Virus record (IMG/VR): IMGVR_UViG_3300011116_001301
Coordinates: 1 to 39,635 of that record
Length of the DNA: 39,635 nucleotides
Origin: a virus
Strand: one strand, 5' to 3'
The notes below the pieces were generated by a model. That model was given only the letters and a program-made list of their open reading frames with translations, searched no databases and had not been told where the DNA came from. The position numbers were made by a program, and so were the translations under genes. Shown piece by piece: positions 6,505-39,635 of this stretch (the first letter of the stretch is position 1; the number at the start of each line of letters is the position of its first letter).

Positions 6505-6633
6505 TTACTTCAACTTAGTTGTTTCAGTATAGTTTGTTTTTTGTTGTTTAATCCAGAAGATATGTTCTAATGTTTGTCTGTGTGTTAAACTACCTTTTAA
6601 GTGTGGTTTTGGTTTAATTGTTGAATGTTTCAT
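6505..6633 (-). CDS. Small 42-aa basic protein
   Basis: A short open frame whose ATG overlaps the TGA of the MORN-repeat gene (ATGA), suggesting translational coupling. The product is basic and hydrophilic (MKHSTIKPKPHLKGSL...), with no recognisable motif. It may be a real small protein or only a chance frame; the overlap and absence of a competing gene in this gap favour the former. Confidence 0.5.
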   Translation of the reverse strand: MKHSTIKPKPHLKGSLTHRQTLEHIFWIKQQKTNYTETTKLK

Positions 6634-7964: not shown

Positions 7965-7968
7965 ATTC

Positions 7969-25441: not shown

Positions 25442-26887
25442 ATGAGTTTAAGAACACTAATTGAAAGTATATTGCTTGAAGGTGAAATAGATAACATCAT
25501 CAAGAACAGAAAAGAAAAGATGATTAAAAAATATTCAGGTGAGTCATTATTTTTTGATTTAGAGGATTTTGAGAATGATTTTAATAGATACACTAAATTA
25601 TTTATTGATAATATACCTACACCAAAAAAATACATATCTAAATATTATGATTTGGTTGAGAAATGGTATGAATATTCGGCTTTAGATATTGATGAGGTTT
25701 TTCAATCAATGTATGAGTATTTCAATAAGTGGATGATATATAAAGCAAAAAACCTTATTACTAAAGATATTTTAGCACAAACACCAGAATCTTTAATTGA
25801 TATAGTTGATGAGGCAGAAGAAAAGGAAATCACAAGAAAGGCTGAAAAAGAAATCAATAAGATATATGAGGACAATAGGTGGTTAGTAATAAGAGTTAAA
25901 AGCCAAGAAGCTTCTTGTAAGTATGGTTCTGAAACTAGATGGTGTATATCAGCAACTGAAGGTGGTAATAGATATACAGGATATGGTTATTCTGAAAACA
26001 ATTTTATTTATTTTATTATTGATAAGAAAAATAGAATGGATGATGCTGATGTTTTATATAAGATGGCAGTATTGGTAAATAAAAAAACAGGAAGTATTCA
26101 AGTTTGGGATGCTGCAGATAAAGAACTAACACCAAATCAAGAAAGTATTGTTAAAAGATTTATACCTGATATATTTGAAGCAATTAGTAAAGATAGTAAA
26201 ATCGCAATGGATGAAATTACTGAAGATTATATTAGATTTGTATTAAACGATGATTATTCACTTAAAAATATTAAGGATTATAAAAGAACAGCATTAAAAT
26301 ATAATACGGATTATTCTATGTTGGAATTAAAGTTCCAATTTGGGGAATCTAGACACTTTGTAGAAGTTATTGTAGATGTTAAAAATAACAACATATCAGC
26401 AACATTTTATCGTTACGAACTAATAAATAACGAAGAAACAGGTGAAAGATATTATAGTTTTACCCCAACAAGTATTATATCTAAGGTATCAAATGAAAGG
26501 ATAACAAAAAGTAATTTCGTTAAACTAATAAAAGAATTAGTAATTGATTTACTCAATTCACCTGAAGTTAAAAAGTATTTTATTGACAACCCTAAAGAGT
26601 ATTTTTCTAATGTAAATCTATATAAAGACATTGAAACTATGGGAACTAAAAAAGTCCCTCAAGAAGCGTTTATTACAGCAATTAAATTATTAAAAGAAAA
26701 GGGTGAGCAAAATATTACAGCGATAAGAAGAATTGTTGATCCAAAATTACAATCATCACATAATGTAAAACCATTACTTAGTTCTCTTTATTCATTTGGT
26801 TTAATTAAATTAGAAAAAAGGGGTAGAAACGTAATAGTTGTCCCTACCCCTAAATTGGTTAAAACTCCTTTGGATAAACTTATTTAA
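25442..26887 (+). CDS. WC-motif family protein 1, candidate packaged protein
   Basis: A 481-aa protein. MSLRTLIESILLEGE is an N-terminal helix ending LLE-G, like a prohead propeptide. The WC module is at about residues 145-225: DNRWLVIRVKSQEASCKYGS, then TRWCISA with W167-C168, YFIIDKK, and a strand pair ending SIQVWDAADKELTP. The C-terminal 75 residues (AIKLLKEKGEQNITAIRRIV, then HNVKPLLSSLYSFGLIKLEK) look like a winged helix, so it may bind DNA. Family function unknown. It is a lone rightward gene between lysis and synthetase genes. Confidence 0.6.
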   Translation: MSLRTLIESILLEGEIDNIIKNRKEKMIKKYSGESLFFDLEDFENDFNRYTKLFIDNIPTPKKYISKYYDLVEKWYEYSALDIDEVFQSMYEYFNKWMIYKAKNLITKDILAQTPESLIDIVDEAEEKEITRKAEKEINKIYEDNRWLVIRVKSQEASCKYGSETRWCISATEGGNRYTGYGYSENNFIYFIIDKKNRMDDADVLYKMAVLVNKKTGSIQVWDAADKELTPNQESIVKRFIPDIFEAISKDSKIAMDEITEDYIRFVLNDDYSLKNIKDYKRTALKYNTDYSMLELKFQFGESRHFVEVIVDVKNNNISATFYRYELINNEETGERYYSFTPTSIISKVSNERITKSNFVKLIKELVIDLLNSPEVKKYFIDNPKEYFSNVNLYKDIETMGTKKVPQEAFITAIKLLKEKGEQNITAIRRIVDPKLQSSHNVKPLLSSLYSFGLIKLEKRGRNVIVVPTPKLVKTPLDKLI

Positions 26888-27710
26888 CCTCAGCTAATTC
26901 AAGTTCTTTCATCATTTTATAAGCTCTGGCTAATCTTGTGAGGCCTATCCCGCCACCGAATCTTGGAAAGAAGTCATATGATAAGAATTGTTCTAATTCC
27001 TTTTCAACTCTTTCTTTACCGAATAGTTCAAATAATTTCTTAGCGTAATTACCATTCTCAATAGTATAGAAAGTATTTCTCATTTGTTCTACATTTGTGC
27101 TTCTTTCAGCTGAACCAATTGTTTCCTGTCCAAATAAGATAACATCAATTTTATTATATAAATCACTTCTATCGTGTTTCATATTCCAAAATGGATTTGT
27201 TCTTTCTGGGAAGTGCTCCAATGATACACAATGTCCGAAATCTTGCCACATTTTAGTTTCTTCTCTGTTTTCCAAAATCTGAACATCATATTTATCACAC
27301 ATAGAATTATAGAACACTCTATCAGGTGCTCCGAAACCTAAATGGATAAGCAATTCTTCTTCCATATTTCTTAAATCATTCATATCACCTTTAGATTCAA
27401 ACTCAAACATTGGGAAAATAAGTTCGTGTCTGCCAGGGATTGGATCTTTTTCTTGTCTGTATGAAGTTGAGATACAGAATACACCATTCCAATCTGGGTT
27501 TTCTAATAACTCGTGTTCCAACCACATTTGTCCTGTTTGTGGTAGAGGCCAAACTTCACCTGAGTAATTGAATTGTGTAATTGAGTGCGGATTTTCGCAT
27601 GCTGCCAAGATAGATAATCTTGATTGTGTAGGGACTTCTAAGAAGCCTTTTGCTAGGAAAAACTCCCTGAGTTTTTGCACTAGTTCGTGATATGTTTTTG
27701 TGTCTTTCAT
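26880..27710 (-). CDS. Class IIb aminoacyl-tRNA-synthetase-like catalytic core
   Basis: A 276-aa protein with the AspRS/AsnRS/LysRS-type catalytic domain. Visible: FLEVPTQSRLS (motif 1 region), PLPQTGQMWLEHELL (the substrate-binding SPQL-type segment), FCISTSYRQEKDPIPGRHEL (motif 2 with the ATP-binding Arg and flipping loop), FEFES, and FGGGIGLTRLARAYKM (motif 3 with its Arg). The N-terminal OB anticodon-binding domain of true AspRS/AsnRS is absent. Such cores activate an amino acid but act on other acceptors: asparagine synthesis (archaeal AS-AR), EF-P lysylation (EpmA), or unknown. It overlaps the end of the 25442 gene by 8 bases on the opposite strand. Confidence 0.85.
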   Translation of the reverse strand: MKDTKTYHELVQKLREFFLAKGFLEVPTQSRLSILAACENPHSITQFNYSGEVWPLPQTGQMWLEHELLENPDWNGVFCISTSYRQEKDPIPGRHELIFPMFEFESKGDMNDLRNMEEELLIHLGFGAPDRVFYNSMCDKYDVQILENREETKMWQDFGHCVSLEHFPERTNPFWNMKHDRSDLYNKIDVILFGQETIGSAERSTNVEQMRNTFYTIENGNYAKKLFELFGKERVEKELEQFLSYDFFPRFGGGIGLTRLARAYKMMKELELAEVK

Positions 27711-27736
27711 AATTTTCTTTTAAGTGTAAGCAAAAA

Positions 27737-27762
27737 AAAACCCAATAGAAATATTGGGTTTT
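27737..27762 (-). terminator. Hairpin terminator
   Basis: AAAACCCAAT and ATTGGGTTTT around a 6-base loop, with a T-run on the minus strand. It separates the 27767 gene from the synthetase-like gene. Confidence 0.85.
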
Positions 27763-27766
27763 AATT

Positions 27767-28006
27767 TTAATAATTTTCGTCTAAATCTTCATCGTCAAAA
27801 TTGTCAAATAAATCGTTTTCCTCTTCAAATGACTCATTAAAATCATCTTCTTCAGGTTGTTCTTCAAACTCATCTGTGACTTCATACATCAATTCGGTAA
27901 ATTGTTCTACCGTGATTTTGTTTTCAACGATTGCTTCATACATCAATAAACAAACCGTGTCAAAATCTTCAGTTTTAATCTTATTTTTTAATTCTGCTAA
28001 TTTCAT
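27767..28006 (-). CDS. Small acidic protein, 79 aa
   Basis: About half the residues in the second part are Asp or Glu (EEQPEEDDFNESFEEEND). The first part is a short helical domain (MKLAELKNKIKTEDFDTVCL). The acidic tail suggests DNA mimicry or binding to a basic partner, but there is no direct evidence. A TATTTAT string lies 18 bases upstream, too far to count with confidence. Confidence 0.62.
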   Translation of the reverse strand: MKLAELKNKIKTEDFDTVCLLMYEAIVENKITVEQFTELMYEVTDEFEEQPEEDDFNESFEEENDLFDNFDDEDLDENY

Positions 28007-28041
28007 AATTTTAATAATTTTAAGATAAATAGTCAGTTTTA

Positions 28042-28296
28042 TTAAAATGAAATTGGATTGTTATGTTTTTTCCAATTTTTACCATAACAAGCTTGCATCG
28101 CTGCTTTCCATTTAGATTTTGCTACTGATAAGTCCAACTTTTCTTTTACAGATTTTTTATAAACCTCAAAACTATATTTAGATGGGTCATAACCTGTTGC
28201 TCTGTTGTTGATGATTTTTCCGTGAGCATCCGTTGCGAATTGTCCAGTCTCATCAAACTTTTTGTAAATCTGTTTTTTTGTGTTTTTATTTTCCAT
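28042..28296 (-). CDS. Small basic protein, 84 aa
   Basis: Not recognised. Lys-rich at both ends (MENKNTKKQIYKKFDE, ACYGKNWKKHNN), with a DAHGKIINNRATGYDPSKYS middle. It lies directly before the acidic 79-aa gene in the same direction; opposite charges hint at a binding pair, which is only a guess. Confidence 0.62.
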   Translation of the reverse strand: MENKNTKKQIYKKFDETGQFATDAHGKIINNRATGYDPSKYSFEVYKKSVKEKLDLSVAKSKWKAAMQACYGKNWKKHNNPISF

Positions 28297-28343
28297 ATTC
28301 TAATTGTATTTAATTTATACTAAATTGTCAATTCTTTTTTTAA

Positions 28344-28598
28344 TTACTTAAATGTTATATATCCAACCGATCTCAATTCCTTTGAGTATTCTAATACATT
28401 TCTGTATGAGTAATACAAATCTCCGTGACAATTCCTGTAATCAAATTGACTGATGAATAACTCATAAGTAATCATTTCAACCACTCTTGGTAATCCTGGT
28501 GTGTGAGTTTCAATGAAAACTCTGTAAGTTTGTTCCTGCCCTACAAATTGGGCTAATCTTAAAATATCCTTCTCAAATTGTTCTTTTGTGATAATCAT
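28344..28598 (-). CDS. Hypothetical 84-aa protein
   Basis: Not recognised. Begins MIITKEQFEKDILRLAQFVG and ends in short strands (VLEYSKELRSVGYITFK). It starts 6 bases after the smpB stop, so it is probably translated from the smpB mRNA. Confidence 0.62.
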   Translation of the reverse strand: MIITKEQFEKDILRLAQFVGQEQTYRVFIETHTPGLPRVVEMITYELFISQFDYRNCHGDLYYSYRNVLEYSKELRSVGYITFK

Positions 28599-28604
28599 AC
28601 TATA

Positions 28605-29030
28605 TTATTTATAATTTTTAAGTTCTCTTTTTGTATCTCTTTCAATATCTTTGGTTTTAATGCTATCTTTTTTATCAAAAGATTTCTTACCTTTTCCCAC
28701 ACCAATAACTACTTTAGCCAATCCTTTTACAAAGATTAGTTCCAAAGGGATTAAAGCATATCCTTTTTGGATAAACTTATTGCGGATTTTGGTTATTTCT
28801 TTCTTATTCAATAACAAGGTTTTATCTCTTTTCTCATCAGGTGAAAAAGGATTGTTTTTATTCACATATAAACCTTTAAGAATAATTGAATTGGATGTGA
28901 TTATGCAGAAAGCATCGGTGAAGTTAGATTTACCATTTCTGATAGATTTAACTTCATCCCCTTTAAGAATAATACCTGCCGTGTATTGTTCCTCAATATT
29001 GTAATCATAAAATGCTTTCCTGTTTTTCAT
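28605..29030 (-). CDS. smpB: SmpB, SsrA (tmRNA)-binding protein
   Basis: A 141-aa protein that aligns by eye along the full SmpB length: NRKAFYDYNIEEQYTAGI, LKGDEVKSIRNGKSNFTDAF (the EVKS(L/I)R.G..N..D.. signature), TLLLNKKEITKI, then KGYALIPLELIFVKGLAKVV, and a basic C-terminal tail VGKGKKSFDKKDSIKTKDIE...R. The body binds the tRNA-like domain of tmRNA and mimics the missing anticodon arm; the tail reaches into the ribosome decoding centre. Phage-encoded SmpB is unusual. No tmRNA gene was found in the window, but five tRNA-like RNAs lie 15 kb away. It has a TATCTTTG box 4 bases before the ATG. Confidence 0.92.
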   Translation of the reverse strand: MKNRKAFYDYNIEEQYTAGIILKGDEVKSIRNGKSNFTDAFCIITSNSIILKGLYVNKNNPFSPDEKRDKTLLLNKKEITKIRNKFIQKGYALIPLELIFVKGLAKVVIGVGKGKKSFDKKDSIKTKDIERDTKRELKNYK

Positions 29031-29034
29031 CCCA

Positions 29035-29042
29035 CAAAGATA
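29035..29042 (-). promoter_or_regulatory. TAnnTTTG box (TATCTTTG) of smpB
   Basis: TATCTTTG, TGGG, then the ATG at 29030. It touches the stop codon of the next gene upstream. Confidence 0.75.
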
Positions 29043-29438
29043 TTATTTATTTTTAACAATTCCAATCAATTTTCTTAAACATTCCAATTCGGCTTGTTCA
29101 TAAGTTTCATATTCCCAATCACCGGTGGGTCTATTTTTAGGCATTGTCCAGTGTTCTTCACCTGTCTTATAATTCCATATCCAATAGTTATAACCTAATT
29201 GATGTGAATGTTGATCGGTAGTTGGATCTATTGAATGTTGCCAATCATATTTCTCCCTTAGAAATCTGAAACATTGAGAAAATGTGGGAGCAACAATACC
29301 ATCTTTAATTAAATCTGATTGAATTGCTTTCCCAATCTCTAATCCGTAATCCTCAGATACATACAAAGCCAAACAAGGTTCGTTAAAACCAAGTTCTATT
29401 ACAGCCAACGCCTCTTTATATGGTGCAAAATCTTTCAT
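29043..29438 (-). CDS. DFxPYxExxxLKELGF-type protein, copy 2
   Basis: A 131-aa protein of a family I recall as common in Bacteroidetes phages and prophages. Features: DFAPYKEALAVIELGFNEPC at the start, APTFSQCFRFLREKY in the middle, and YEQAELECLRKLIGIVK at the end. Function unknown. It is a tandem paralogue of the next gene upstream, whose stop it follows by 1 base. The ATG at 29438 matches the start of that paralogue better than an upstream in-frame ATG. Confidence 0.82.
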   Translation of the reverse strand: MKDFAPYKEALAVIELGFNEPCLALYVSEDYGLEIGKAIQSDLIKDGIVAPTFSQCFRFLREKYDWQHSIDPTTDQHSHQLGYNYWIWNYKTGEEHWTMPKNRPTGDWEYETYEQAELECLRKLIGIVKNK

Positions 29439-29439
29439 A

Positions 29440-29844
29440 TTATTTTTGTTTAACAATTTCAATTAGTTTTCTAAGACAAGCAAGTTCTGCTTCTTCGTAG
29501 GTAGTAAAGTTTCCTTTTGATATATTTTCTTGGCGTTTACCATTTATATGATATGCGTGTATTTCTCCACCATAACTATATTCTGATAATACTCCACTAA
29601 ATAAAATATACTTCTCTCGAAACCAACGGAAGGCTTGTGAGAATGTTGGAGCTGAAATACAATCTCCTCCACTATCTGAGTGGCTTTCTTTATTAGTTTT
29701 TAACTTTGGATGACCCCAAATACTCGTACAAAATATAAGTTCAGGGGTATAAGTCCATTGCTTTATACAAGGTTCATCAAACCCTAATTCCTTTAATTCC
29801 ATACTTTCTGAATATGGGACAAAATCTTTTTCTAAATTATTCAT
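29440..29844 (-). CDS. DFxPYxExxxLKELGF-type protein, copy 1
   Basis: A 134-aa paralogue of the downstream gene: DFVPYSESMELKELGFDEPC, APTFSQAFRWFREKY and YEEAELACLRKLIEIVK. The middle has diverged strongly, so the duplication is old or the core is under diversifying selection. It leads the pair with a TAATTTTG box. Confidence 0.82.
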   Translation of the reverse strand: MNNLEKDFVPYSESMELKELGFDEPCIKQWTYTPELIFCTSIWGHPKLKTNKESHSDSGGDCISAPTFSQAFRWFREKYILFSGVLSEYSYGGEIHAYHINGKRQENISKGNFTTYEEAELACLRKLIEIVKQK

Positions 29845-29848
29845 ATCA

Positions 29849-29856
29849 CAAAATTA
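29849..29856 (-). promoter_or_regulatory. TAnnTTTG box (TAATTTTG)
   Basis: TAATTTTG, TGAT, then the ATG at 29844. It overlaps the stop of the 29854-30066 gene. Confidence 0.65.
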
Positions 29857-30066
29857 TTTTTCCTGAAAACAATAACTAACCTTACCCTCAGTAAATGGTT
29901 TATAGATTTCAATCTGTTTCTTAGCAAACTCTTCCTTTACTTCCTTTGCTACATCACTTGAAAATGGACAATCCATAGCCCAATTATTACCAAATCTTCC
30001 CATTTTGGTATTACCTGTGTCTGAAATTATCAATAAAACTTGATTGATTGGTTTTTTTTTCTTCAT
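29854..30066 (-). CDS. Hypothetical 70-aa protein
   Basis: Not recognised. Basic start (MKKKKPINQVLLIISDTG), then a small alpha/beta domain (VAKEVKEEFAKKQIEIYKPF). The ATG at 30066 was chosen because a TATATTTG box ends 4 bases before it; an in-frame ATG at 30081 lies upstream of that box. Confidence 0.68.
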   Translation of the reverse strand: MKKKKPINQVLLIISDTGNTKMGRFGNNWAMDCPFSSDVAKEVKEEFAKKQIEIYKPFTEGKVSYCFQEK

Positions 30067-30070
30067 CCCA

Positions 30071-30078
30071 CAAATATA
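30071..30078 (-). promoter_or_regulatory. TAnnTTTG box (TATATTTG)
   Basis: TATATTTG, TGGG, then the ATG at 30066. Confidence 0.75.
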
Positions 30079-30085
30079 CAAAAAA

Positions 30086-31339
30086 TTATCTATTCCCCAA
30101 AATAGTTATCATATTTTCTATAACTCCTTGATGTTCAGATATGTCTTTCAATTTAATTGTTCCAACCGATAATCTAAACCATCCTTTATTATCTGTTGAG
30201 CCAAAATACTCAAATGGAACTAATCCCACTTTACATTCATCAATAAGGAAATCTAACATTTGTTCCAAACTATTAAACTTATCCACATAACCCAAATAAA
30301 CAGATATGTAAATAGCCCCATCAGGTTTTTTGTAGTCAATATTATAACCCTCAGATTTCATCTTCTCTAATACATCACAAATACCATTACATATTTGTCC
30401 AAAAGTATTATTTCTCCCCGATAAAATCGTTTCAATACCATAATAAGGATCATCTCTATCCATTGATAGGTATTGCCCAACCGCAATCTGTTCAGGTTTA
30501 TTAGCCCAAGCCCCAATATGACTGAATATCTCACCAGCCTTTTTAATTAAATGCTCAGGTCCAAACATCCATCCAACCCTTACACCTGTCGCAGCCAATG
30601 ACTTAGATATACCATCAACACATACCAAAAAATCTTTGATCTGAGGAACCAATTTAATTGGATGATGTGTTTGTATTCTTGATAAATCTGAATAAATCTG
30701 GTCAAAGAAAAGATATACTGGTTTGTAATTATTGCTCACTTCCAACCTTCTTTTATTTTCATCCACTATAATTTGGCATATTTCCTTTAATACATCAGGA
30801 TTGATTATTTTTCCTGTTGGATTTTGGGGTGAGCAAAGACATATCATTCTTGCTGTCTTGATATTATCTTTAATTTGTTTTGCCGTTGGAAAGAAATCAT
30901 TTTGGGGTGAGCATTCAATTTTAACCGCCCTTCCATCGTGTAAGAAGGTATAATGGTTATTATTCCAACTTGGAACTGGGAATATAATTTCATCACCTTT
31001 ATCAATGATTGTCTTGAAAATTGTGTAGATAAGAGGTCTAACACCAGCACCAATAAGTATTTGGTTCGGTGAATAATCTATAAAATGAGTTTTTCTAAGA
31101 TGTGATGAAACAGCTTCTCTAAGTGATAACTCACCAACAGGTGTTGGATAATTCGTATTGGATTGATTGAAGTTTAATTGAATATAATTATTCAATTTTT
31201 GTGGTATAGGATACAATTGAGAATCAAAATCCCCAATCGTATAGTTATATACCTTTTCAGTTTTAGCCTTTATTTTGCTTGATATTTTTAGTATCTCAGA
31301 ACCAATAATATCTTCTCCGTATTTAGATAGTTGTCCCAT
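30086..31339 (-). CDS. Class I PLP-dependent aminotransferase (aspartate aminotransferase fold)
   Basis: A 417-aa enzyme with a complete class I/II active site: NYPTPVGELSLREAV (substrate and PLP entry), CLCSPQNPTGKI with the PLP-contacting Asn, FFDQIYSDL with the Asp that pairs with the pyridine N and the Tyr, DGISKSLAATGVRVGW with the Schiff-base Lys (about residue 250), and WFRLSVGT with the Arg that binds the substrate carboxylate. It should move an amino group between an amino acid and a 2-oxo acid; the substrate cannot be read. Aminotransferases are rare in phages. The ATG at 31339 follows the stop of the 31341-32330 gene by 1 base; an earlier ATG would overlap that gene. Confidence 0.9.
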   Translation of the reverse strand: MGQLSKYGEDIIGSEILKISSKIKAKTEKVYNYTIGDFDSQLYPIPQKLNNYIQLNFNQSNTNYPTPVGELSLREAVSSHLRKTHFIDYSPNQILIGAGVRPLIYTIFKTIIDKGDEIIFPVPSWNNNHYTFLHDGRAVKIECSPQNDFFPTAKQIKDNIKTARMICLCSPQNPTGKIINPDVLKEICQIIVDENKRRLEVSNNYKPVYLFFDQIYSDLSRIQTHHPIKLVPQIKDFLVCVDGISKSLAATGVRVGWMFGPEHLIKKAGEIFSHIGAWANKPEQIAVGQYLSMDRDDPYYGIETILSGRNNTFGQICNGICDVLEKMKSEGYNIDYKKPDGAIYISVYLGYVDKFNSLEQMLDFLIDECKVGLVPFEYFGSTDNKGWFRLSVGTIKLKDISEHQGVIENMITILGNR

Positions 31340-31340
31340 A

Positions 31341-32330
31341 TTACGCCATTGTTTCTCCCATATCCATTGCTTCATTCATACCCATTGCTTCATTTTCATA
31401 ATATGTATTCATTGGCATTTCTGCCATATCCATCGCCTCACCTGCCATCATAGCCACTGGTTCTTCCATAGTTGGTTCTGGTGTTGATCTCATAGTTTCA
31501 TATTCATAATAACTGATAAGATTTTTGGTTTCAACCTCATCCAATAAAGAAGCATTTTGGATATTGTTTTCTCTACAATAGCTGATGAATAATTCTTTAA
31601 GGTGTAAAGGGATTGGAACAAACATCATTTCCATTCTACTATCCCAATCAGTCCAACAAGAAAACTTGGTTGAGAAATTATATATTTCCATTAGTTCAGC
31701 ATCATAAGCAACTGATTCCTCATCATCATATGATTTTTTAATTGGACCTCCTACTAAATCCTGATGAGTTCTGGGTTTTAATGTTTCATGGTAATATGAT
31801 TTTTCCATATCATAATACAAACCAATTTTTCTATTCACACCTTTTTCAATGAAGTAAGCTAAAATACCTTTATCGGTATATCTGTAAAAATATTCAGATT
31901 GAGTGACACACCATTTAGTTCCTCTACCATAAACAGAAGCTGCATCATATGAAAGAGGTAAGAATAACATATAGTTATCATCTTCATAAAGGACTTTAAT
32001 TTCCTTTTTAGCCTTACCAACTGATTTTGTTAAAGTAGCTTCTTTAATTGCTTTTTTAATTGATGCCATATTTTTATACTGATTTAAGTCAGCATTTTCA
32101 ATCATACCATTTTTCGCCAATTGGTCAAATGTTTTTAATTTTTGCATAATGTATTCCATTTCATTTATTGCCGTAAGCTCAAAATCATTGGATAGATTAT
32201 TTGTAAAACGAAGTATGTGCTCCGCATATTTTTTTGTTTTGGAATTGTCAATATTATTCGCCAATTCAATAAAATCAATAGGTTTTATTTTACCCTTAAA
32301 CTTTTCCCTAATTAAATCAATTTTAGCCAT
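31341..32330 (-). CDS. WC-motif family protein 2 with Met-rich tail
   Basis: A 329-aa protein. The WC module is at about residues 115-165: DDNYMLFLPLSYDAASVYGR, then TKWCVTQ (W140-C141), YFYRYTDKGILAYFIEKG. The N-terminus (MAKIDLIREKFKGKIKPIDF) is helical but lacks a clear (L/I)xE end. The last 50 residues hold 13 Met, in repeats such as EAMDMAE, EAMGMNE and EAMDMGE. It lies between a short gene (8-base overlap at its start) and the aminotransferase (1 base). Confidence 0.62.
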   Translation of the reverse strand: MAKIDLIREKFKGKIKPIDFIELANNIDNSKTKKYAEHILRFTNNLSNDFELTAINEMEYIMQKLKTFDQLAKNGMIENADLNQYKNMASIKKAIKEATLTKSVGKAKKEIKVLYEDDNYMLFLPLSYDAASVYGRGTKWCVTQSEYFYRYTDKGILAYFIEKGVNRKIGLYYDMEKSYYHETLKPRTHQDLVGGPIKKSYDDEESVAYDAELMEIYNFSTKFSCWTDWDSRMEMMFVPIPLHLKELFISYCRENNIQNASLLDEVETKNLISYYEYETMRSTPEPTMEEPVAMMAGEAMDMAEMPMNTYYENEAMGMNEAMDMGETMA

Positions 32331-32601
32331 TTGTTTCTAAGTTATATTGTGTGTTTATTTGTATTTTGTTATTCTTAAAATCTTTCATTAGCGGATCTCC
32401 GAATTCATCCACCCATTTATCATAATCAATAAGTTTTTGTTGTTCCTTGAATATGATTTTTAATTTCCCATTATCACCAAGAATTGTAATTTTCTCTTCT
32501 CCTTGTGTAATATCAATGGGTGAAAAGTTTATTAGTTGTGCCATTGTGGCAAAAAACTCAAACTTTGCTTTATCTTTCAATGTATCTCTTAAATCTGTCA
32601 T
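32323..32601 (-). CDS. Hypothetical 92-aa protein
   Basis: Not recognised. An amphipathic N-terminal helix (MTDLRDTLKDKAKFEFFA) is followed by a small beta domain (ITQGEEKITILGDNGKLKII). It overlaps the 31341-32330 gene by 8 bases and the upstream lipoprotein gene by 4, in a tightly packed operon. Confidence 0.62.
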   Translation of the reverse strand: MTDLRDTLKDKAKFEFFATMAQLINFSPIDITQGEEKITILGDNGKLKIIFKEQQKLIDYDKWVDEFGDPLMKDFKNNKIQINTQYNLETNG

Positions 32602-32801
32602 TGCTCTATCGTATATTCGTTATGTTTAATAATCCATTTAATTTCACCATCTTTATATAATAATAATTGTCCTTCATCGGTTATTATTACTTTATCACAA
32701 ACATAAGTTGTATCGGTAATAACTTTTGTTTGTTTATGGGTTTCAATATTACAAGATAAGATACTAAATATCGTTATCATTCCAATTATACGGAATACCA
32801 T
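32598..32801 (-). CDS. Small putative lipoprotein
   Basis: A 67-aa protein, MVFRIIGMITIFSILSC with a lipobox Cys at 17, then a small domain with YVCDKVIITDEGQLLLY. The start lies inside the preceding gene and two other ATG codons are near, so the exact start is uncertain. Confidence 0.58.
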   Translation of the reverse strand: MVFRIIGMITIFSILSCNIETHKQTKVITDTTYVCDKVIITDEGQLLLYKDGEIKWIIKHNEYTIEQ

Positions 32802-33132
32802 TGTCATAATCAATCGTCTTAAATGATTTTATTAAATTATCTATTTCTGTTAAATCTTTACTTTTTGGATCAATCTTTAATAAATGTTTTTGGTAGTTTT
32901 TAATCAACTTAAACATACCATCAAACCCATTTACAGCATTTAATATGAATACAGCATCTTTCCTGGTATCAATAATATTTTGTTCGTCCCTATGCTCTTC
33001 AACTTCAGCTGTTATCGTGCCAACAAACAAATTAGTTTCATCAATTAAATCAATTGAACCGAACGTATCCATATCATCAGTATCAGTCCTTTCTTCCATT
33101 CTTAGAGGAAGTTTCATACTTCTATCAAACAT
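32764..33132 (-). CDS. Hypothetical protein with NGIPxxW tail
   Basis: A 122-aa acidic protein (MEERTDTDDMDTFGSIDLID), then VGTITAEVEEHRDEQNIIDT and a helical part, ending TIDYDNGIPYNWNDNDI. Its start codon overlaps the stop of the next gene (TAATG). The segment encoding the tail overlaps the start of the lipoprotein gene in another frame. Confidence 0.68.
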   Translation of the reverse strand: MFDRSMKLPLRMEERTDTDDMDTFGSIDLIDETNLFVGTITAEVEEHRDEQNIIDTRKDAVFILNAVNGFDGMFKLIKNYQKHLLKIDPKSKDLTEIDNLIKSFKTIDYDNGIPYNWNDNDI

Positions 33133-33404
33133 TACCATTTTTCAGGGACCCCATTCCCAATATCATTTTTTCTCACCTTAAATAATAACCAAACATAATA
33201 ACATAATAAAGGTGCATTTACACATAAACCGAAAATCACACCAACTGTAAAACTACCAATACCAAAAAAAGGTAATGAGCTCAGCATTAAAGATATTAAA
33301 ACCCAAGTAAATCCAAAGAAATAAAGACCCTTACCTCTTTTTGCAGAAAAAGTTAAACTTTTTAACCTTCTTTCAGGAAACCATTCAATCATATAATTTT
33401 TCAT
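33132..33404 (-). CDS. Small membrane protein with NGVPxxW tail
   Basis: A 90-aa protein: a basic N-terminus (FPERRLKSLTFSAKRGKG), two hydrophobic helices (about residues 25-45 and 52-75), and the end KNDIGNGVPEKW, where the tail is the very C-terminus. It shows that the shared tail also occurs on a membrane protein, on a terminus that probably faces the cytosol. The ATG at 33404 was chosen because it opens with a charged segment before the helices. Confidence 0.62.
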   Translation of the reverse strand: MKNYMIEWFPERRLKSLTFSAKRGKGLYFFGFTWVLISLMLSSLPFFGIGSFTVGVIFGLCVNAPLLCYYVWLLFKVRKNDIGNGVPEKW

Positions 33405-33441
33405 ATTATGAAGTATATTAAATAAAAACCAAAAAAGAAAA

Positions 33442-33448
33442 TATTTAT
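33442..33448 (+). promoter_or_regulatory. TATTTAT box of the MORN-lysozyme gene
   Basis: AATATTTATGATAATATG, 6-base spacer to the ATG at 33455. Confidence 0.5.
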
Positions 33449-33454
33449 GATAAT

Positions 33455-35050
33455 ATGAGCGATACAAAAAAGAAAAAGTTATTCACACCTATTGGTTTAT
33501 CCGGTGAAAAATCTAGATGGATACAATGGAATAAAGATCAACCAATTAAAGATGGGATAAGGATAAATCAATACACACATGATGGTAAAAAAACTGGTTA
33601 TTGGGAAAGTTATTGGGCTAATGATAAATTAGAGAGTAAGGGTTCATATATAAATGATAAAAAAGATGGTTATTGGGAGTGGTATTGGATGAATGGTAAT
33701 TTATGGTCTAAAGGTTCATATATAAATGATAAGCAGTATGGTTTATGGGAGGGTTATAATAAACAAAGTGGCGAGTTAGAATATAGGTATATATGGAAAA
33801 ATGGTAAATTAGTTGAAAAATTACCTATAGCCGAAGCTGAAACGCCTAAAAAGAAGTTATTTAGGCCTATTGGCTTATCCGGTGAAGATAGTAGATATGA
33901 TAAATGGAACAAGGAACAACCTATTAAAGATGGAGTAAGAATAAACCAATATACAAATGATGGAAAGAAAGAGGGTTATTGGGAGGAATATCGTAATGGT
34001 TATTTATATTCTAAGGGTTTATATATAAATGATAAAAAAGAAGGTAATTGGGAGAATTATTATGAAAATGGTGGATTAGCCACCAAAGTTCCATATAAGA
34101 ATGATAAAATGAATGGTATGTGGGAACAGTATTTCCATGAAGGTCAATTACGAGCTAAAGGTTTATATAAGGATGGTAAGGAAGATGGTGTATGGGAACA
34201 TTATTTCCCTAATGGTGATTTGTATAGTAGATACTTATATGATAATGGTGAAGTAGTTGAACAATTGTTTATGGTTGAATCTAAAACCCCTTCATTTTTA
34301 TTAAAAGAAGAAATGGTTTTAATAAGAGAAGGAAATGTTCAGGATTATATTGAAAATATCCTATCCAAAATTAAAAACTTACCATATGAAACAAAAAAGA
34401 AGTATCTTACAATCGCAATTTCAACCCTATTAGGTTATACATCTTACCCTGTTATTCAATCAATTATTGATAAATCACCAGATAAAGAAGCAAGAGAAAT
34501 AACCCATAGAGTGTTGAATAAAAAAGATAATTTATCTATGTTTAACGATGGAACAAAACTTCACCTATCTAAGAAAGGACTTCAACATATAGTAGATGAA
34601 GAAAAACCAAAACTAATAGCATACGCATTGGGTGATGGTAAGATAACAGTCGGTTATGGACACGCTGAACCTATTGGAACAACAAAACTTAAAGTGGGAC
34701 AAAAAATAAGCAAAGAACAAGCAAAACAATATCTTAAACAAGATCTTAAAGTAGCTGCCGATGGAGTTAGAAGAATGTTTAGCGAATGGAAAGAACAAAA
34801 CAAAAACTATAAAGTCACTCAAGATATGTTTGATGCTTTGGTTTCAATGGCTTTTAATATAGGCGTATCAGGTTTAAGACAATCAGAAATGGTTAGACAT
34901 CTTAAATTAGGTGATTATAAAACAGCAGGACAACTCATTAAACAAACAAATATAAATCCAGATACATTCCCAGGTCTTGAAAAAAGAAGGGATAGGGAAT
35001 CTAATATGTTTTTATCATATTTATCAAAACCAACTGACGTAAATACATAA
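33455..35050 (+). CDS. MORN-repeat protein fused to GH24 lysozyme
   Basis: A 531-aa fusion. Residues 5-130 are KKKLFTPIGLSGEKSRW plus three MORN-like repeats; a second KKKLFRPIGLSGE module at about residue 130 leads four more repeats. A spacer with LLKEEMVLIREGN (possible cut site) is followed, from about residue 360, by a T4-lysozyme-like GH24 domain: LQHIVDEEKPKLIAYALGDG with the catalytic Glu, KITVGYGHAEP with the active-site Thr region, and FDALVSMAFNIGVSGLRQSE near the end. It should cut murein glycan strands. Processing at LIRE would free the lysozyme. A virion-borne lysozyme would help DNA entry; the MORN part may bind membrane or protein partners. Confidence 0.82.
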   Translation: MSDTKKKKLFTPIGLSGEKSRWIQWNKDQPIKDGIRINQYTHDGKKTGYWESYWANDKLESKGSYINDKKDGYWEWYWMNGNLWSKGSYINDKQYGLWEGYNKQSGELEYRYIWKNGKLVEKLPIAEAETPKKKLFRPIGLSGEDSRYDKWNKEQPIKDGVRINQYTNDGKKEGYWEEYRNGYLYSKGLYINDKKEGNWENYYENGGLATKVPYKNDKMNGMWEQYFHEGQLRAKGLYKDGKEDGVWEHYFPNGDLYSRYLYDNGEVVEQLFMVESKTPSFLLKEEMVLIREGNVQDYIENILSKIKNLPYETKKKYLTIAISTLLGYTSYPVIQSIIDKSPDKEAREITHRVLNKKDNLSMFNDGTKLHLSKKGLQHIVDEEKPKLIAYALGDGKITVGYGHAEPIGTTKLKVGQKISKEQAKQYLKQDLKVAADGVRRMFSEWKEQNKNYKVTQDMFDALVSMAFNIGVSGLRQSEMVRHLKLGDYKTAGQLIKQTNINPDTFPGLEKRRDRESNMFLSYLSKPTDVNT

Positions 35051-35057
35051 AACACGA

Positions 35058-35064
35058 TATTTAT
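35058..35064 (+). promoter_or_regulatory. TATTTAT box of the 35071 gene
   Basis: GATATTTATACTAATATG, 6-base spacer to the ATG at 35071. Confidence 0.5.
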
Positions 35065-35070
35065 ACTAAT

Positions 35071-36891
35071 ATGGGATTTTTACAATTTTTATTCGAAGGA
35101 AAAGTCGAGGACTTTAAAAAAATATTCAAGGACAAATATACAACCCCTGAACAAATGGACGCTATTGTCAGAGTTTCATCTGAAGTAGAACCTAAACACA
35201 AATATTTAATTTGGTTAGCTAAATCACTTACCAAACCAACAACCGATGAAGCCGCATTTGCCGAAGAATTAGCAAACGCACAAGAACTTTTAATGAGGTT
35301 TAATACAATTGGTTCTAATCTACCTATTAAAGATATTTCACAATACAAAAGTATATCTGAATTAGCAGAAGCAATTAAAACTTATGAGAATAGACAAAGA
35401 AGAACAATTAAAAAGGTTGATGGAGCTGATATAATCTACGATGATGATGATTATACAATTGTTCATCCAAAAGAATATAAAGCATCTTGTTTCTATGGTA
35501 AAGGTTCTAAGTGGTGCACAGCTTCTGAAGATAGTGATAGTAATTGGAGAAGATATAATGAAGATGCTAAATTATTTTATTTCTTATCAAAGAAATTACC
35601 TACAAGTGATAGATTCTATAAAGTAGCTATATTACAAAATTACAATGGGGAAAGAACATTTTGGGATGCACCTGATAAACCTTTCACTAGTGGTTGGATA
35701 ATAGGGACTGATTACTTGAATGATTTACTTAAAATTGTAGATCAATACATGAAAGATAATTATTCAAGGGAAGTTGAAATATTCTCAGATAAACAAAAAG
35801 CACAAGCCGAAAGAGAAAGATTGAGAAGAATTGAAGCTCAAGAAAGATTAAATAGAAAAAGACAAGAAGCCGAAAGTAGAAGAGAAAATAATGAATGGGA
35901 TCCTGAAGAAATTACACATGGTGAAGTTGGAGCGAAAGCTTGGGCTTTATTTACTTTTTTAACTCAGTATGATGATCTTGAAGCAAAACAACCAGGAGAT
36001 ACTGAAAGAATTGAAACTATTGAATCAGAATTGGAAAGATTGGGTGAATTACAAAGTCAATATGAAGCTGAAGGTAGAGATTTAACTGAAATTAACGAAC
36101 AAATATCAGAATTAGAAGAAGAAAAAGAAGGTTTAGAAAAAAGAATTGATGTGTATGATATGATACCCGAACACAATAATTATGGTATGACAGTATTTAG
36201 TATCGCAAGCATTGATCGTCAAGGTTACGAATATACTGTCGGTGATGAAGAACAAGTTGAACAAGCCGCATATGAATATGAAAAAGATTTAATTAGAGAT
36301 ACAGGTTATGATAGTTTTAATCCGAATTATATTAAAAAATTTATTAATGCTGACGCTGTAGCTGATGAAGCAAGAGAAAATTATAATTATTGGCTCTATG
36401 ATGAACCAAGTTCATATTTAGATGATAATCAAAGATCTTTAAGTAAAGAACAAGAAAAAGAAATTGCTGAATACCAAGAAAAGATTGATAAATATAAAAG
36501 ATTTCTTAAAAAGGCTGAAGATCGTCAAGTAGAGTTTGATTCCGATAGTAGTCAATATAAAGCAATACAAAAAGGTTTAGATAAGTTAAATGATTTAATA
36601 ACTGACCTTGAGTATGATATTGAAAATATTAAAGATGACCCTCAAGGTGATTTTAGTGAGGATTTAATTGAAGAAAAAATTGATGAGTTAGTTGATGATG
36701 TAAGAAATAACCCTTTAGATTGGTTAGAGGAAATGGGTAGTAATATTGCGGATTATATTGATGAAGATGAAATAATTAAAGATATTATTAGTGATAATGG
36801 TTATTACAATATATTAAATGGTTATAGTGGTGAAGGTGACGAAATAACATGGGATGGTGAAACATACCATATAATGAATACTGATCGATAA
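35071..36891 (+). CDS. WC-motif family protein 3, candidate packaged protein with coiled coils
   Basis: A 606-aa acidic protein. It opens MGFLQFLFEGKVEDF, a very short hydrophobic helix ending LFE-G. The WC module is at about residues 125-200: DDDYTIVHPKEYKASCFYGK, then SKWCTAS (W148-C149), LFYFLSKK, TFWDAPDKPF. Residues 240-355 and 455-520 are long charged helices with coiled-coil character (QAERERLRRIEAQERLNRKR; ELEEEKEGLEKRID). No enzymatic signature was recognised. It forms a three-gene rightward series with similar boxes. Confidence 0.6.
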   Translation: MGFLQFLFEGKVEDFKKIFKDKYTTPEQMDAIVRVSSEVEPKHKYLIWLAKSLTKPTTDEAAFAEELANAQELLMRFNTIGSNLPIKDISQYKSISELAEAIKTYENRQRRTIKKVDGADIIYDDDDYTIVHPKEYKASCFYGKGSKWCTASEDSDSNWRRYNEDAKLFYFLSKKLPTSDRFYKVAILQNYNGERTFWDAPDKPFTSGWIIGTDYLNDLLKIVDQYMKDNYSREVEIFSDKQKAQAERERLRRIEAQERLNRKRQEAESRRENNEWDPEEITHGEVGAKAWALFTFLTQYDDLEAKQPGDTERIETIESELERLGELQSQYEAEGRDLTEINEQISELEEEKEGLEKRIDVYDMIPEHNNYGMTVFSIASIDRQGYEYTVGDEEQVEQAAYEYEKDLIRDTGYDSFNPNYIKKFINADAVADEARENYNYWLYDEPSSYLDDNQRSLSKEQEKEIAEYQEKIDKYKRFLKKAEDRQVEFDSDSSQYKAIQKGLDKLNDLITDLEYDIENIKDDPQGDFSEDLIEEKIDELVDDVRNNPLDWLEEMGSNIADYIDEDEIIKDIISDNGYYNILNGYSGEGDEITWDGETYHIMNTDR

Positions 36892-36913
36892 TTAAAAAAG
36901 ATAAAAATTGAGA

Positions 36914-36920
36914 TATTTAT
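36914..36920 (+). promoter_or_regulatory. TATTTAT box of the 36925 gene
   Basis: GATATTTATAGATATG, 4-base spacer to the ATG at 36925. Confidence 0.5.
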
Positions 36921-36924
36921 AGAT

Positions 36925-37908
36925 ATGACAAAAAATGAAGCAAAAAGAGCCTTTTTAGATAGGGGTATATTAAAGAAAGACGCATTTGATAGGTTCTTAA
37001 ATGAAGATCCAACAACACAGAAAAAGTATGTGTTTTATATGATTAAAGAATATTTAAAACAAGCCGACAATGAAGGTAATAAAGTATCTGATTTATCTTT
37101 AGATGATTTAGATATGGGTATTTTATCACCAATATTTTCATATGTGACAGAATATAATGCTTTACTTGGTAGAGTTCCGCAAGATAAAAAAGATATTTAT
37201 AAATTACCTTTTGATGAATTGGTTGATGTTGTAGATACATTAAATAATGTTGAGGGTGAAAGTGAAAGATCTTCTTTAAGAAAAAGAGCCCGTGAAAACT
37301 CTTACAATTTTAATGAAATGGGTATTGTAGATGTTCCAGGTGTATCAGTTGTTGCACCAATGAACCACGATGCTATTTGTTATTACGGACAAGGAACTAG
37401 ATGGTGTGTTGCTATGGATACACCTACGCATTGGGTAGGTTACTTCTTTAACTCAAGAAATACATTTTTTATTATAAGTGCTACAAGTGATGCGGTTAAA
37501 AAGAAAATTAGAAATCATTACAAAGATAAGTGGCAATCAATGGGTTTAGGTAGAGTCCCTCTTAACGGTAAAAAAATGAAATGGGTATTAGTTAAAAACG
37601 ATAAAGATGTTGATGAAGTAGCGGCTGAAAATGAAAATAACGCAGCTGAATTATTTAAACAAAGATTAGGTTTAGATTCATTAAAAGGTTATACCGTTGA
37701 AAATTATGGTTATAGAAACTTATATAAAGTAGCATTTTTAATCCCACCAATGAAAAATAGGTCTGGGGAAGAAATAAAAGATGAGAATGGGGAATATATA
37801 TCTGATTGGAAACATGCCCATATCTATTCATCAGATGATATCTCATTCAACAATGGTTGGAGAGAATATTTTAAGGTAATTGGTTTAGATAAGTTTATTG
37901 AGGAATAA
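36925..37908 (+). CDS. WC-motif family protein 4
   Basis: A 327-aa protein. The N-terminus (MTKNEAKRAFLDRGILKKDA) is helical but unlike the (L/I)xE peptides. The WC module is at about residues 135-185: VVAPMNHDAICYYGQ, then TRWCVAM (W160-C161), YFFNSRNTFFIISA. Unlike the other members it has a long insert before the final strand (YGYRNLYKVAFLIPPMKN...). The stop lies 4 bases before the next gene, so 36925-38798 form an operon. Confidence 0.6.
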   Translation: MTKNEAKRAFLDRGILKKDAFDRFLNEDPTTQKKYVFYMIKEYLKQADNEGNKVSDLSLDDLDMGILSPIFSYVTEYNALLGRVPQDKKDIYKLPFDELVDVVDTLNNVEGESERSSLRKRARENSYNFNEMGIVDVPGVSVVAPMNHDAICYYGQGTRWCVAMDTPTHWVGYFFNSRNTFFIISATSDAVKKKIRNHYKDKWQSMGLGRVPLNGKKMKWVLVKNDKDVDEVAAENENNAAELFKQRLGLDSLKGYTVENYGYRNLYKVAFLIPPMKNRSGEEIKDENGEYISDWKHAHIYSSDDISFNNGWREYFKVIGLDKFIEE

Positions 37909-37912
37909 AACT

Positions 37913-38296
37913 ATGAAAATTGTAATAACTGAAGAACAAAAAAAGAAATTATTCGCTCCATTGGATCTTGATAAAAGGGCTGAAGAATATAAAGGTATCA
38001 TTAAAAAAAGATTGGATGATATTAGAAATACTCCTTTAGGTAAATTATCAAAAGAATCTATATTTGAATGGATACAGGAAAATAATCTAGATCAAAAATT
38101 AAAATTATCTTATAAAGGTCCTGCTTTGGGTGAAGTAATTGGGACATCATATAATAAATCAACTGGTCAGGTTAGTTTATTTATTTACGATAATACCGAT
38201 AAAAAAATAATGATAAGGTTTAAGATATCGGATATAGAAATAGGGACTTATGATACGCCAGATGATGGTGATGAAATTTTTTACCCATTAGATTAA
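37913..38296 (+). CDS. ITEEQKKKLF protein, 127 aa
   Basis: Starts MKIVITEEQKKKLFAPLDLD, nearly the same as the MORN protein at 6630-7964 and the next gene, then a small unrelated domain (RLDDIRNTPLGKLSKESIFE, KISDIEIGTYDTPDDGDEIF). A TEE sequence at residues 6-8 could be a processing site. An in-frame ATG 15 bases upstream exists, but the shared start fixes this one. Function unknown. Confidence 0.66.
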   Translation: MKIVITEEQKKKLFAPLDLDKRAEEYKGIIKKRLDDIRNTPLGKLSKESIFEWIQENNLDQKLKLSYKGPALGEVIGTSYNKSTGQVSLFIYDNTDKKIMIRFKISDIEIGTYDTPDDGDEIFYPLD

Positions 38297-38300
38297 AATT

Positions 38301-38798
38301 ATGAAAATAGTAATAACTGAAGAACAAAAAAAGAAATTGTTTGTTCCCTTAGATTTAGACAAAAGAAATAAACAATTTAAGGATGAGTTCGCTAAAAAAA
38401 CCAAAGAGCTTTTATCACGTTTTAATATAACTGAAATAATGAATCATGGTAGAGTTAATGATATTTTTGAAATAACTGCTGAGGATACTTTAGATGGTGC
38501 TTACGAAAAAGTAATAATGGACGGTAAAAACTATCACGGATTTCCAAGATTTGATGATTTTCCAAGATTTGATAATGACGAGGATGAAGAAATAATATCA
38601 GAATGGGAAGATATGTTAGCAACATACTTAAATATGCTTATACCCCAACCAACAGAAGAAAGTTTATCTAAATCAGAACCAAGTGTTGTTGGTAGGATGT
38701 ATAGAGTTGATATTACACCAAAAAAAATAGATGTTAGTTTCTATTACGCAATTGTAGAATATACAGAAAAAGAAGGTAAAGAAAGTATTACTCTTTAA
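38301..38798 (+). CDS. ITEEQKKKLF protein, 165 aa
   Basis: Starts MKIVITEEQKKKLFVPLDLD, then a different domain from that of its neighbour. It includes a short internal duplication (FPRFDDFPRFDN) and ends VDVSFYYAIVEYTEKEGKES-type strands. The DNA for the first 14 codons is almost identical to that at 37913, while the rest is unrelated, which points to an exchangeable leader module. Its end overlaps the convergent gene by 11 bases. Confidence 0.66.
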   Translation: MKIVITEEQKKKLFVPLDLDKRNKQFKDEFAKKTKELLSRFNITEIMNHGRVNDIFEITAEDTLDGAYEKVIMDGKNYHGFPRFDDFPRFDNDEDEEIISEWEDMLATYLNMLIPQPTEESLSKSEPSVVGRMYRVDITPKKIDVSFYYAIVEYTEKEGKESITL

Positions 38799-39030
38799 TA
38801 TCATCACACCAAATAGGGGTTTTTTCCCCCATATAAGCCCCTGAAACATTATACTCAAAGTATTCAATCGCTTCTAACTCACTCATATCCTTTATAAGGA
38901 TACCAATACATTTAGATACAGAATAAATCAATCTCATAGATTTCATATCAACCCCAATGATAGCTTCATCAAAACCATCGGCTTTAAGGAAACTCTCATC
39001 AGGGTATCTATCAATAATAGTATCAATCAT
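38788..39030 (-). CDS. FLKADGFDEAIIG-type conserved phage protein
   Basis: An 80-aa protein: ESFLKADGFDEAIIGVD, then RLIYSVSKCIGILIKDM, and YMGEKTPIWCDD. I recall this pattern from a family found in many unrelated phages, function unknown. It starts where the next gene ends (overlapping TAA/ATG by 1 base) and is probably translated from the same mRNA. Confidence 0.82.
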   Translation of the reverse strand: MIDTIIDRYPDESFLKADGFDEAIIGVDMKSMRLIYSVSKCIGILIKDMSELEAIEYFEYNVSGAYMGEKTPIWCDDIKE

Positions 39031-39635
39031 TAGTTGCTATTTTTAGTTTTGATATTAGGTCGGTTTGAGATGTGCTCAATAACCGCTTCGTAAAGCTTAA
39101 TAAACATCTCTTTTGTTCTACCACCAAACACAACATCTTTTACTTCATTTCTTGTGTCTTGCACATTCCAGAATTCAATGTGTTTCTGAATAGATGTAAA
39201 CTTCTTACCTTTACTATCTAAATTACTGAAATCAGAACCCAATTTATCAGGTTGTAAATACACACCAAAGGTTTCTTTCTGATGATTTTTCTTAGAGATA
39301 AAGTAAATCAACACACCTTTAGAATAAGAATAGAAATGGGTTGAGGTGTCTTTTGAAGCTGTACACCATTTGGTATTAGAACCATAAGTTAAAGAAGCCT
39401 CATAGGTTAAAGGTGTTCCAATCATATACTCATCATCCTCAAAATACTTATGGAACTCTTTTTCTCTACGTTTTAATTCGCGTTGTTGCTTTGCCGACTC
39501 CAACACTTTATTAAACTCTTCAACTGATTTAAACTTAAAGATATCCGAATCAGCACCTTTAATGAAACCTTCTTTTACTAACTCATCAAAAGTTGCACAA
39601 TCTTTATTGAAATCATTTTCTAACCAATCAGTAAA
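39030..39635 (-). CDS. WC-motif family protein 5, 5' end outside the window
   Basis: An open frame that continues past the right edge of the window; 201 residues are visible. The WC module is intact: FEDDEYMIGTPLTYEASLTY, then NTKWCTAS (W at visible residue 90), FYSYSKGVLIYFISKKN. It is preceded by a basic helix (SAKQQRELKRREKEFHKYFE) resembling the helices before the module in proteins 2 and 3. The start and any N-terminal targeting peptide are not visible. Confidence 0.62.
   Translation of the reverse strand, partial: FTDWLENDFNKDCATFDELVKEGFIKGADSDIFKFKSVEEFNKVLESAKQQRELKRREKEFHKYFEDDEYMIGTPLTYEASLTYGSNTKWCTASKDTSTHFYSYSKGVLIYFISKKNHQKETFGVYLQPDKLGSDFSNLDSKGKKFTSIQKHIEFWNVQDTRNEVKDVVFGGRTKEMFIKLYEAVIEHISNRPNIKTKNSN

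What the first reader, a model, noticed from the sequence alone, without database searches (positions are those of the whole stretch)
25442..39635. Five-member WC-motif protein family of unknown function
Proteins at 25442, 31341, 35071, 36925 and 39030 share a module of about 60-80 residues: acidic start, (A/C)xxYGxx(T/S)(K/R)WC(T/V/I)(A/S), a Y-rich segment, then a (I/L)xYF(I/L)x(K) strand. Flanking parts are unrelated. Five copies within 14 kb, an invariant Trp-Cys pair, and packaging-like N-termini suggest a diversified effector family. The layout (Gly ... x-Cys ... Tyr ... hydrophobic strand) loosely recalls the PcfJ-like module.
Basis: partly seen in the sequence, partly recalled or inferred. 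Interest (0 to 1): 0.75.

Follow-up and report, generated by a model that had tools for sequence, protein, structure and literature searches.

The report
Giant-phage WC protein family, partly virion-packaged
Five genes in this giant-phage fragment belong to one large, uncharacterised protein family found so far only in viruses; some members carry what looks like a removable tag that loads them into the virus head, so they are probably injected into the host cell at infection.

Summary
Five window proteins (WC1-WC5) share one homologous domain: a profile built without window sequences finds all five (E 1e-12 to 1e-27) and no other of 156 window ORFs. 'Flanks unrelated' is only partly right: an N-terminal helical domain of about 100 residues is shared too; the C-terminal parts differ.

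All five fall in PHROG 17056 (unknown function). IMG/VR holds over 544 relatives. Among 50,697 phage records only 14 match, all 284-440 kb. The searches found none in 84,980 prokaryote species or 72,556 plasmids. Giant-phage records carry 1-8 copies. Cys is invariant (138/138), Trp nearly so (137/138).

The family has two tiers. Long members (including WC1, WC3) carry an N-terminal LxE|G tag like T4 capsid-targeting propeptides; short members (WC2, WC4, WC5) lack it and start where the tag would be cut off. A T4-type prohead protease is present in all six searched records over 230 kb. The PA5oct member is annotated as mass-spectrometry-detected in the virion.

Most likely, long members are packaged, injected host-takeover or anti-defence effectors built on a PcfJ-like alpha/beta core; short members act in the cell. 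PcfJ kinship is borderline; formal membership fails. The biochemical activity is unknown.

The parts
25442..26887 (+). WC1, 481 aa, long tagged form: N-terminus MSLRTLIESILLE|GEIDN; WC motif ASCKYGSETRWCIS; possible winged-helix-like C-terminus (sub-threshold)
   Evidence: orthologues L105-L107
31341..32330 (-). WC2, 329 aa, short untagged form; motif AASVYGRGTKWCVT; AlphaFold model pLDDT 81, over 90 through most of the module
35071..36891 (+). WC3, 606 aa, long tagged form: MGFLQFLFE|GKVEDF; motif ASCFYGKGSKWCTA; long charged/coiled-coil C-terminus
36925..37908 (+). WC4, 327 aa, untagged and most divergent member; motif AICYYGQGTRWCVA
39030..39635 (-). WC5, 201 aa held (truncated at window end; orthologues 259 aa), short untagged form; motif ASLTYGSNTKWCTA
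25442..25480 (+). predicted capsid-targeting propeptide of WC1 (MSLRTLIESILLE)
   Evidence: inference from T4 cleavage logo LxE, PMC9026906
35071..35097 (+). predicted capsid-targeting propeptide of WC3 (MGFLQFLFE)

Best explanation
The five genes are ancient paralogues of a giant-phage protein family (PHROG 17056). Shown: the members share an N-terminal helical domain plus an alpha/beta 'WC' domain with an invariant Cys and near-invariant Asp, Gly, Trp, Lys and Asp, followed by a C-terminal part that differs between members. Inferred: long members (WC1, WC3) carry a T4-style capsid-targeting propeptide, are loaded into the prohead core, trimmed by the gp21-type prohead protease after LxE, and ejected with the DNA; short members (WC2, WC4, WC5) start at the position of the trimmed form and act in the infected cell. 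Inferred and weaker: the WC domain is a distant PcfJ-like domain serving as a common catalytic or ligand-binding core, and the variable C-termini direct it to different host or defence targets, so the family works like T4's packaged Alt/IP proteins.
For: Homology of all five. Core conservation in 138 profile hits: Cys 138/138, Trp 137/138, Gly 137/137, Asp98 137/139, Lys188 127/135, Asp208 127/130; the same pattern holds in 73 sequences under 60% identical. Two-tier N-terminus: 27 of 34 long members have [LIVFMY]xE[GSAN] near the N-terminus against 5.4 expected by shuffling, short ones 9 of 57 against 7.2. Median distance from Met1 to the conserved Lys is 44 (long) versus 31 (short), but 31 from the predicted cut site in long ones (Mann-Whitney P 4e-11 before, 0.76 after). 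Peptidase S77 (gp21) present in 6 of 6 searched records over 230 kb. PA5oct gp279, a WC protein (MKLFEVFTLYE|DKAEL), is annotated 'structural protein, ESI-MS/MS' next to the large terminase. T4 precedent for CTS, LxE logo, injected Alt and IPI: PMC9026906. Paralogues spread over the tree. Virus-restricted in these searches: 14 of 50,697 phage records, all 284-440 kb; none found in prokaryote genomes or plasmids.
Against: No cleavage, ejection or activity has been shown. In PA5oct a crude LxE test does not separate MS-detected from undetected proteins (15/44 vs 13/46; many detected proteins are tail proteins). The PA5oct/Paride copy is single and sits in the head-tail gene cluster, which also fits a structural role. 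The PcfJ link is below threshold. No conserved gene neighbourhood and no defence family match.
Confidence: 0.5

Rival explanations
1. The long members are internal head-core or scaffold-associated structural proteins, and the WC domain is a non-catalytic interaction module; multiple copies tune a very large capsid or DNA packaging.
For: PA5oct gp279 is MS-detected and lies between the terminase and a virion structural gene, with the same position in Paride; all 14 matching isolate records are 284-440 kb; T4-type protease present.
Against: Most short members lack the tag (9 of 57 with motif, 7.2 expected), so not all members can be head proteins by this route; copies lie scattered without a fixed neighbourhood; near-invariant polar residues (Asp98, Lys188, Asp208, Cys158) look more like a functional pocket than a packing surface.
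Confidence: 0.25
2. The WC domain is an intracellular regulatory or nucleic-acid-associated domain of giant phages unrelated to packaging; the N-terminal similarity to capsid-targeting sequences is incidental.
For: The short clade is widespread; WC1 C-terminus weakly resembles a winged-helix-type family (HVO_A0114, E 0.03); PcfJ relatives sit on conjugative plasmids and phages of Firmicutes.
Against: Tag enrichment 27/34 vs 5.4 expected, with cut-site register matching the short-form start; MS annotation of the PA5oct member.
Confidence: 0.15
3. The WC domain is a degenerate or divergent GNAT-type acyltransferase.
For: Most of the top 26 structure rows for the WC2 model are GNAT folds, best Z 5.7, rmsd 4.5 over 93 residues.
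Against: Z under 8 is common by chance per the tool's own note; not reproduced with the lower-confidence WC4 model; no conserved Q/RxxGxG/A acetyl-CoA loop in the family consensus.
Confidence: 0.07

Closest known systems
PHROG 17056 / PHROG 28193 (unknown function)
   Same: All 65 members of the alignment match PHROG 17056 and 60 match PHROG 28193; the same WC region is covered
   Different: Only a catalogue entry; no function, no two-tier N-terminus or copy-number pattern given there
PcfJ-like proteins (Pfam PF14284; pCF10 PcfJ)
   Same: Order P ... G xx x(H/W)C ... Y ... hydrophobic strand plus basic residue; Cys on Cys in hhalign; next-best named family by Foldseek
   Different: Below Pfam cut-off; PcfJ invariants Glu, His, Arg and Thr-x-Glu are not conserved in WC; the WC Asp98/Lys188/Asp208 are not in the PcfJ set; no shared N-terminal domain seen
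T4 internal head proteins with capsid-targeting sequence (IPI, IPII, IPIII, Alt)
   Same: Short hydrophobic N-terminal propeptide ending LxE, gp21-type protease in the genome
   Different: Different bodies; here tagged and untagged paralogues share the same body; packaging supported only by the MS annotation of one relative
GNAT acyltransferase fold
   Same: Weak topological resemblance of the WC2 model
   Different: No acetyl-CoA loop motif, low Z, not reproduced with WC4

Membership tests
PHROG 17056 | profile match | tested here: met
   all five window proteins E 3e-10 to 2e-5; 65 of 65 relatives
PcfJ-like (PF14284) | score above Pfam gathering cut-off (25 bits) | tested here: not met
   WC5 16.0 bits, E 0.011; 3 of 65 members at E 0.05 or better, best 0.0019
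PcfJ-like (PF14284) | invariant Glu-Gly, His-Cys-Val, Tyr, Arg, Thr-x-Glu (set from nine PcfJ sequences) | tested here: not met
   only Gly, Cys and Tyr are kept in the WC family
PcfJ-like (PF14284) | distant homology by profile-profile and fold comparison | tested here: inconclusive
   hhalign P 0.008-0.028, 1 of 200 column shuffles reaches it; Foldseek E 0.01-0.2 to PcfJ models
T4-type CTS-packaged internal proteins | short N-terminal propeptide ending (L/I)xE | tested here: met
   27 of 34 long members vs 5.4 expected; WC1 and WC3 have it, WC2, WC4 and WC5 do not
T4-type CTS-packaged internal proteins | gp21-type prohead protease (Peptidase S77) in the same genome | tested here: met
   6 of 6 searched records over 230 kb; not testable in the 39.6 kb window itself
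T4-type CTS-packaged internal proteins | present in the virion | tested here: inconclusive
   PA5oct gp279 record note ESI-MS/MS; no data for the window phage
T4-type CTS-packaged internal proteins | cleaved in the head and ejected into the host | not testable with these tools
   needs N-terminomics and an ejection assay
GNAT acyltransferase | acetyl-CoA loop Q/RxxGxG/A after strand 4 | tested here: not met
   family consensus after the last strand is fWNxxD without conserved glycines
GNAT acyltransferase | GNAT fold | tested here: inconclusive
   WC2 model Z 5.7, 93 residues, rmsd 4.5; no such match listed for the WC4 model
Cys-His(-Asp) peptidase or zinc site | conserved His, or at least one more conserved Cys | tested here: not met
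   best His column 32%, second Cys column 55%

The most novel reading that the evidence does not exclude
The WC domain is a new Cys-dependent enzyme or ligand-binding superfamily, sharing a fold with PcfJ of conjugative elements and with proteins of marseillevirus-like eukaryotic giant viruses (Foldseek E about 1e-6, one annotated as ankyrin repeat protein). Giant phages would deploy it in two forms: pre-packaged copies injected at time zero through a removable tag, and tagless paralogues made in the cell, with variable C-termini choosing the targets.
Probability: 0.2. Interest if true: 0.8.

Novelty: new variant of a known kind. Interest (0 to 1): 0.48.

Why it matters
Giant phages carry thousands of uncharacterised genes. 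A multi-copy family restricted, as far as searched, to viruses, with an invariant pocket-like residue set and a packaged/unpackaged split, points directly at what giant phages may inject and gives a short list of testable proteins, including one in isolated Pseudomonas phages (PA5oct, Paride, MIJ3, Callisto).

Tried and rejected
Chance motif: rejected. Known trivial domain: Pfam, NCBIfam and PADLOC give nothing above cut-off over the WC region. Solved structures: none by sequence, none by Foldseek at E 0.001. Classical Cys protease or zinc site: no conserved His or second Cys. GNAT: see rivals. Gene neighbourhood as a clue: at most 11 of 61 loci share a neighbour family. PA5oct-wide LxE enrichment among MS-detected proteins: not significant (15/44 vs 13/46). 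Cellular homologues: none confirmed in two scans of 84,980 species and none in plasmids; both genome scans used narrow patterns, so distant cellular relatives are not excluded. First genome contigs attempt with the five-sequence alignment could not be run. Paper searches for PcfJ function gave nothing useful; the PA5oct omics paper is not held.

Full report
What was checked. The window is a 39,635-base virus record from IMG/VR. WC5 as a tblastn query finds the other four at E 3e-21, 2e-15, 3e-13 and 2e-5. An HMM of the 72-residue module built from relatives outside the window scores the five proteins at roughly 1e-12 to 1e-27 and none of the other window ORFs, 156 scanned in all. A second HMM of the preceding 100-130 residues is significant for WC2, WC3 and WC4 on its own. 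So the shared unit is a two-domain body, not just a 60-80 residue module, and only the C-terminal parts differ.

How large the family is. A scan of IMG/VR with the motif-derived pattern gave at least 599 stretches, of which 544 encode relatives. Among annotated phages only 14 of 50,697 records match: SCTP-2 (440 kb, seven places), eleven PA5oct/Paride-type Pseudomonas phage records (about 285-288 kb) and two records of CcrBL9 (322 kb). A profile search of 14 giant-phage or fragment records gave 1 to 8 copies each. Two pattern scans of 84,980 prokaryote species genomes found no relative, and plasmids gave none; the genome patterns are narrow, so this shows rarity rather than absence. All 65 sequences of the alignment match PHROG 17056, unknown function.

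Conservation. Because the IMG/VR scan selects for the motif, I rebuilt the statistics from profile hits, which include members found without it. Cys is present in 138 of 138, Trp in 137 of 138 (one Phe), Gly in 137 of 137. Asp98, Pro142, Tyr151, Tyr171, Lys188 and Asp208 (HMM numbering) are each about 92-99% conserved. The pattern holds in 73 sequences below 60% identity. No His column exceeds 32% and no second Cys column exceeds 55%, which argues against a Cys-His protease or a zinc site. Most of the profile hits still derive from loci that were fetched through the motif, so the Trp/Cys figures are somewhat flattered.

Two tiers. Full-length members fall into long (400 aa or more) and short classes. 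Of 34 long ones, 27 have [LIVFMY]xE[GSAN] close to the N-terminus against 5.4 expected from shuffling; short ones have 9 of 57 against 7.2 expected. Typical tags are MKFISILLKE|GRKEDL, MSLGKVLLE|GRREDF, MKIKHITQYLFE|SYKDAQ. The median distance from Met1 to the first conserved Lys is 44 residues in long members and 31 in short ones, but 31 from the predicted cut in long ones. The tag therefore looks like an added, removable piece. The choice of cut site (last motif) is a simple rule and scatters, so this is support, not proof. In T4, such N-terminal propeptides target IPIII and others into the prohead core and are cut by gp21, and Alt and IPs are ejected into the host (PMC9026906). A Peptidase S77 of the gp21 type is present in all six searched records larger than 230 kb. 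PA5oct gp279, a WC protein with MKLFEVFTLYE|DKAEL, is annotated as a structural protein by ESI-MS/MS and lies next to the large terminase. A crude whole-proteome check in PA5oct did not separate detected from undetected proteins (15/44 versus 13/46).

In the window. WC1 and WC3 are tagged; WC2, WC4 and WC5 are not. In the tree the five are spread over distinct clades, each with relatives in other phages, so they are old paralogues, not a recent local expansion; deep nodes of that tree are weakly supported.

Structure. AlphaFold models: WC2 mean pLDDT 81, over 90 through most of the module; WC4 mean pLDDT 70. Both retrieve the same relatives from BFVD, including the PA5oct and CcrBL9 proteins and marseillevirus LCMAC201/202 proteins, so the most divergent window member appears to share the fold. 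No solved structure matches at E 0.001. VIA-align ranks GNAT folds first for WC2 (Z 5.7, rmsd 4.5, 93 residues), not for WC4; at this Z it may be only a common arrangement.

PcfJ. Formal membership fails: scores are below Pfam's cut-off, and PcfJ's own invariant residues other than Gly, Cys and Tyr are not kept. Distant kinship is open: hhalign aligns Cys with Cys at P 0.008-0.028, and 1 of 200 column-shuffled PcfJ profiles scored as high; after the WC family itself, PcfJ-like proteins are the next named family in Foldseek's list. One giant phage with five WC copies also encodes a genuine PcfJ-domain protein.

Mechanism. Shown: homology, conservation, two-tier N-termini, presence of the protease in larger relatives, MS annotation of one relative. 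Inferred: packaging, cleavage and ejection of long members. Weaker inference: a shared catalytic or binding core aimed at host or defence targets by variable C-termini. I put packaging of long members at about 0.75, an effector role at about 0.5, PcfJ kinship at about 0.5.

Noticed in passing
28605-29030 (-): Phage-encoded SmpB (PF01668, E 1e-44), the tmRNA partner of trans-translation; no tmRNA found in the window.
   Followed up: partly
26880-27710 (-): 276-aa class II (D/K/N) tRNA-synthetase-like protein (E 6e-14), next to WC1; short for a full synthetase.
   Followed up: partly
6630-7985 (-), 37898-38296 (+), 38301-38798 (+): Recurrent N-terminus MKI(V/I)ITEEQKKKLFxPxxL on otherwise different proteins, possibly a second type of packaging tag; MORN repeats follow it at 6630 and are fused to a phage lysozyme at 33455-35050.
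   Followed up: no
18772-19803 (-) and 7969-9063 (-): Proteins with tag-like N-termini and, by eye, kinase-like (GAGAFG, HDGN, FFDMF) and HELKH metallopeptidase-like motifs; no Pfam match.
   Followed up: partly
30086-31375 (-), 15417-16400 (-): Phage-encoded aminotransferase class I/II and adenylosuccinate synthetase.
   Followed up: no
BFVD A0A481YZT2, A0A481Z016, A0A481YW50: Marseillevirus LCMAC201/202 proteins match the WC fold (Foldseek E 1e-6 to 1e-5), one annotated as an ankyrin repeat protein: the domain may occur in eukaryotic giant viruses.
   Followed up: no
L149 (G008 about 200016-200432): A giant phage with five WC copies also encodes a genuine PcfJ-domain protein above the Pfam cut-off.
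   Followed up: no
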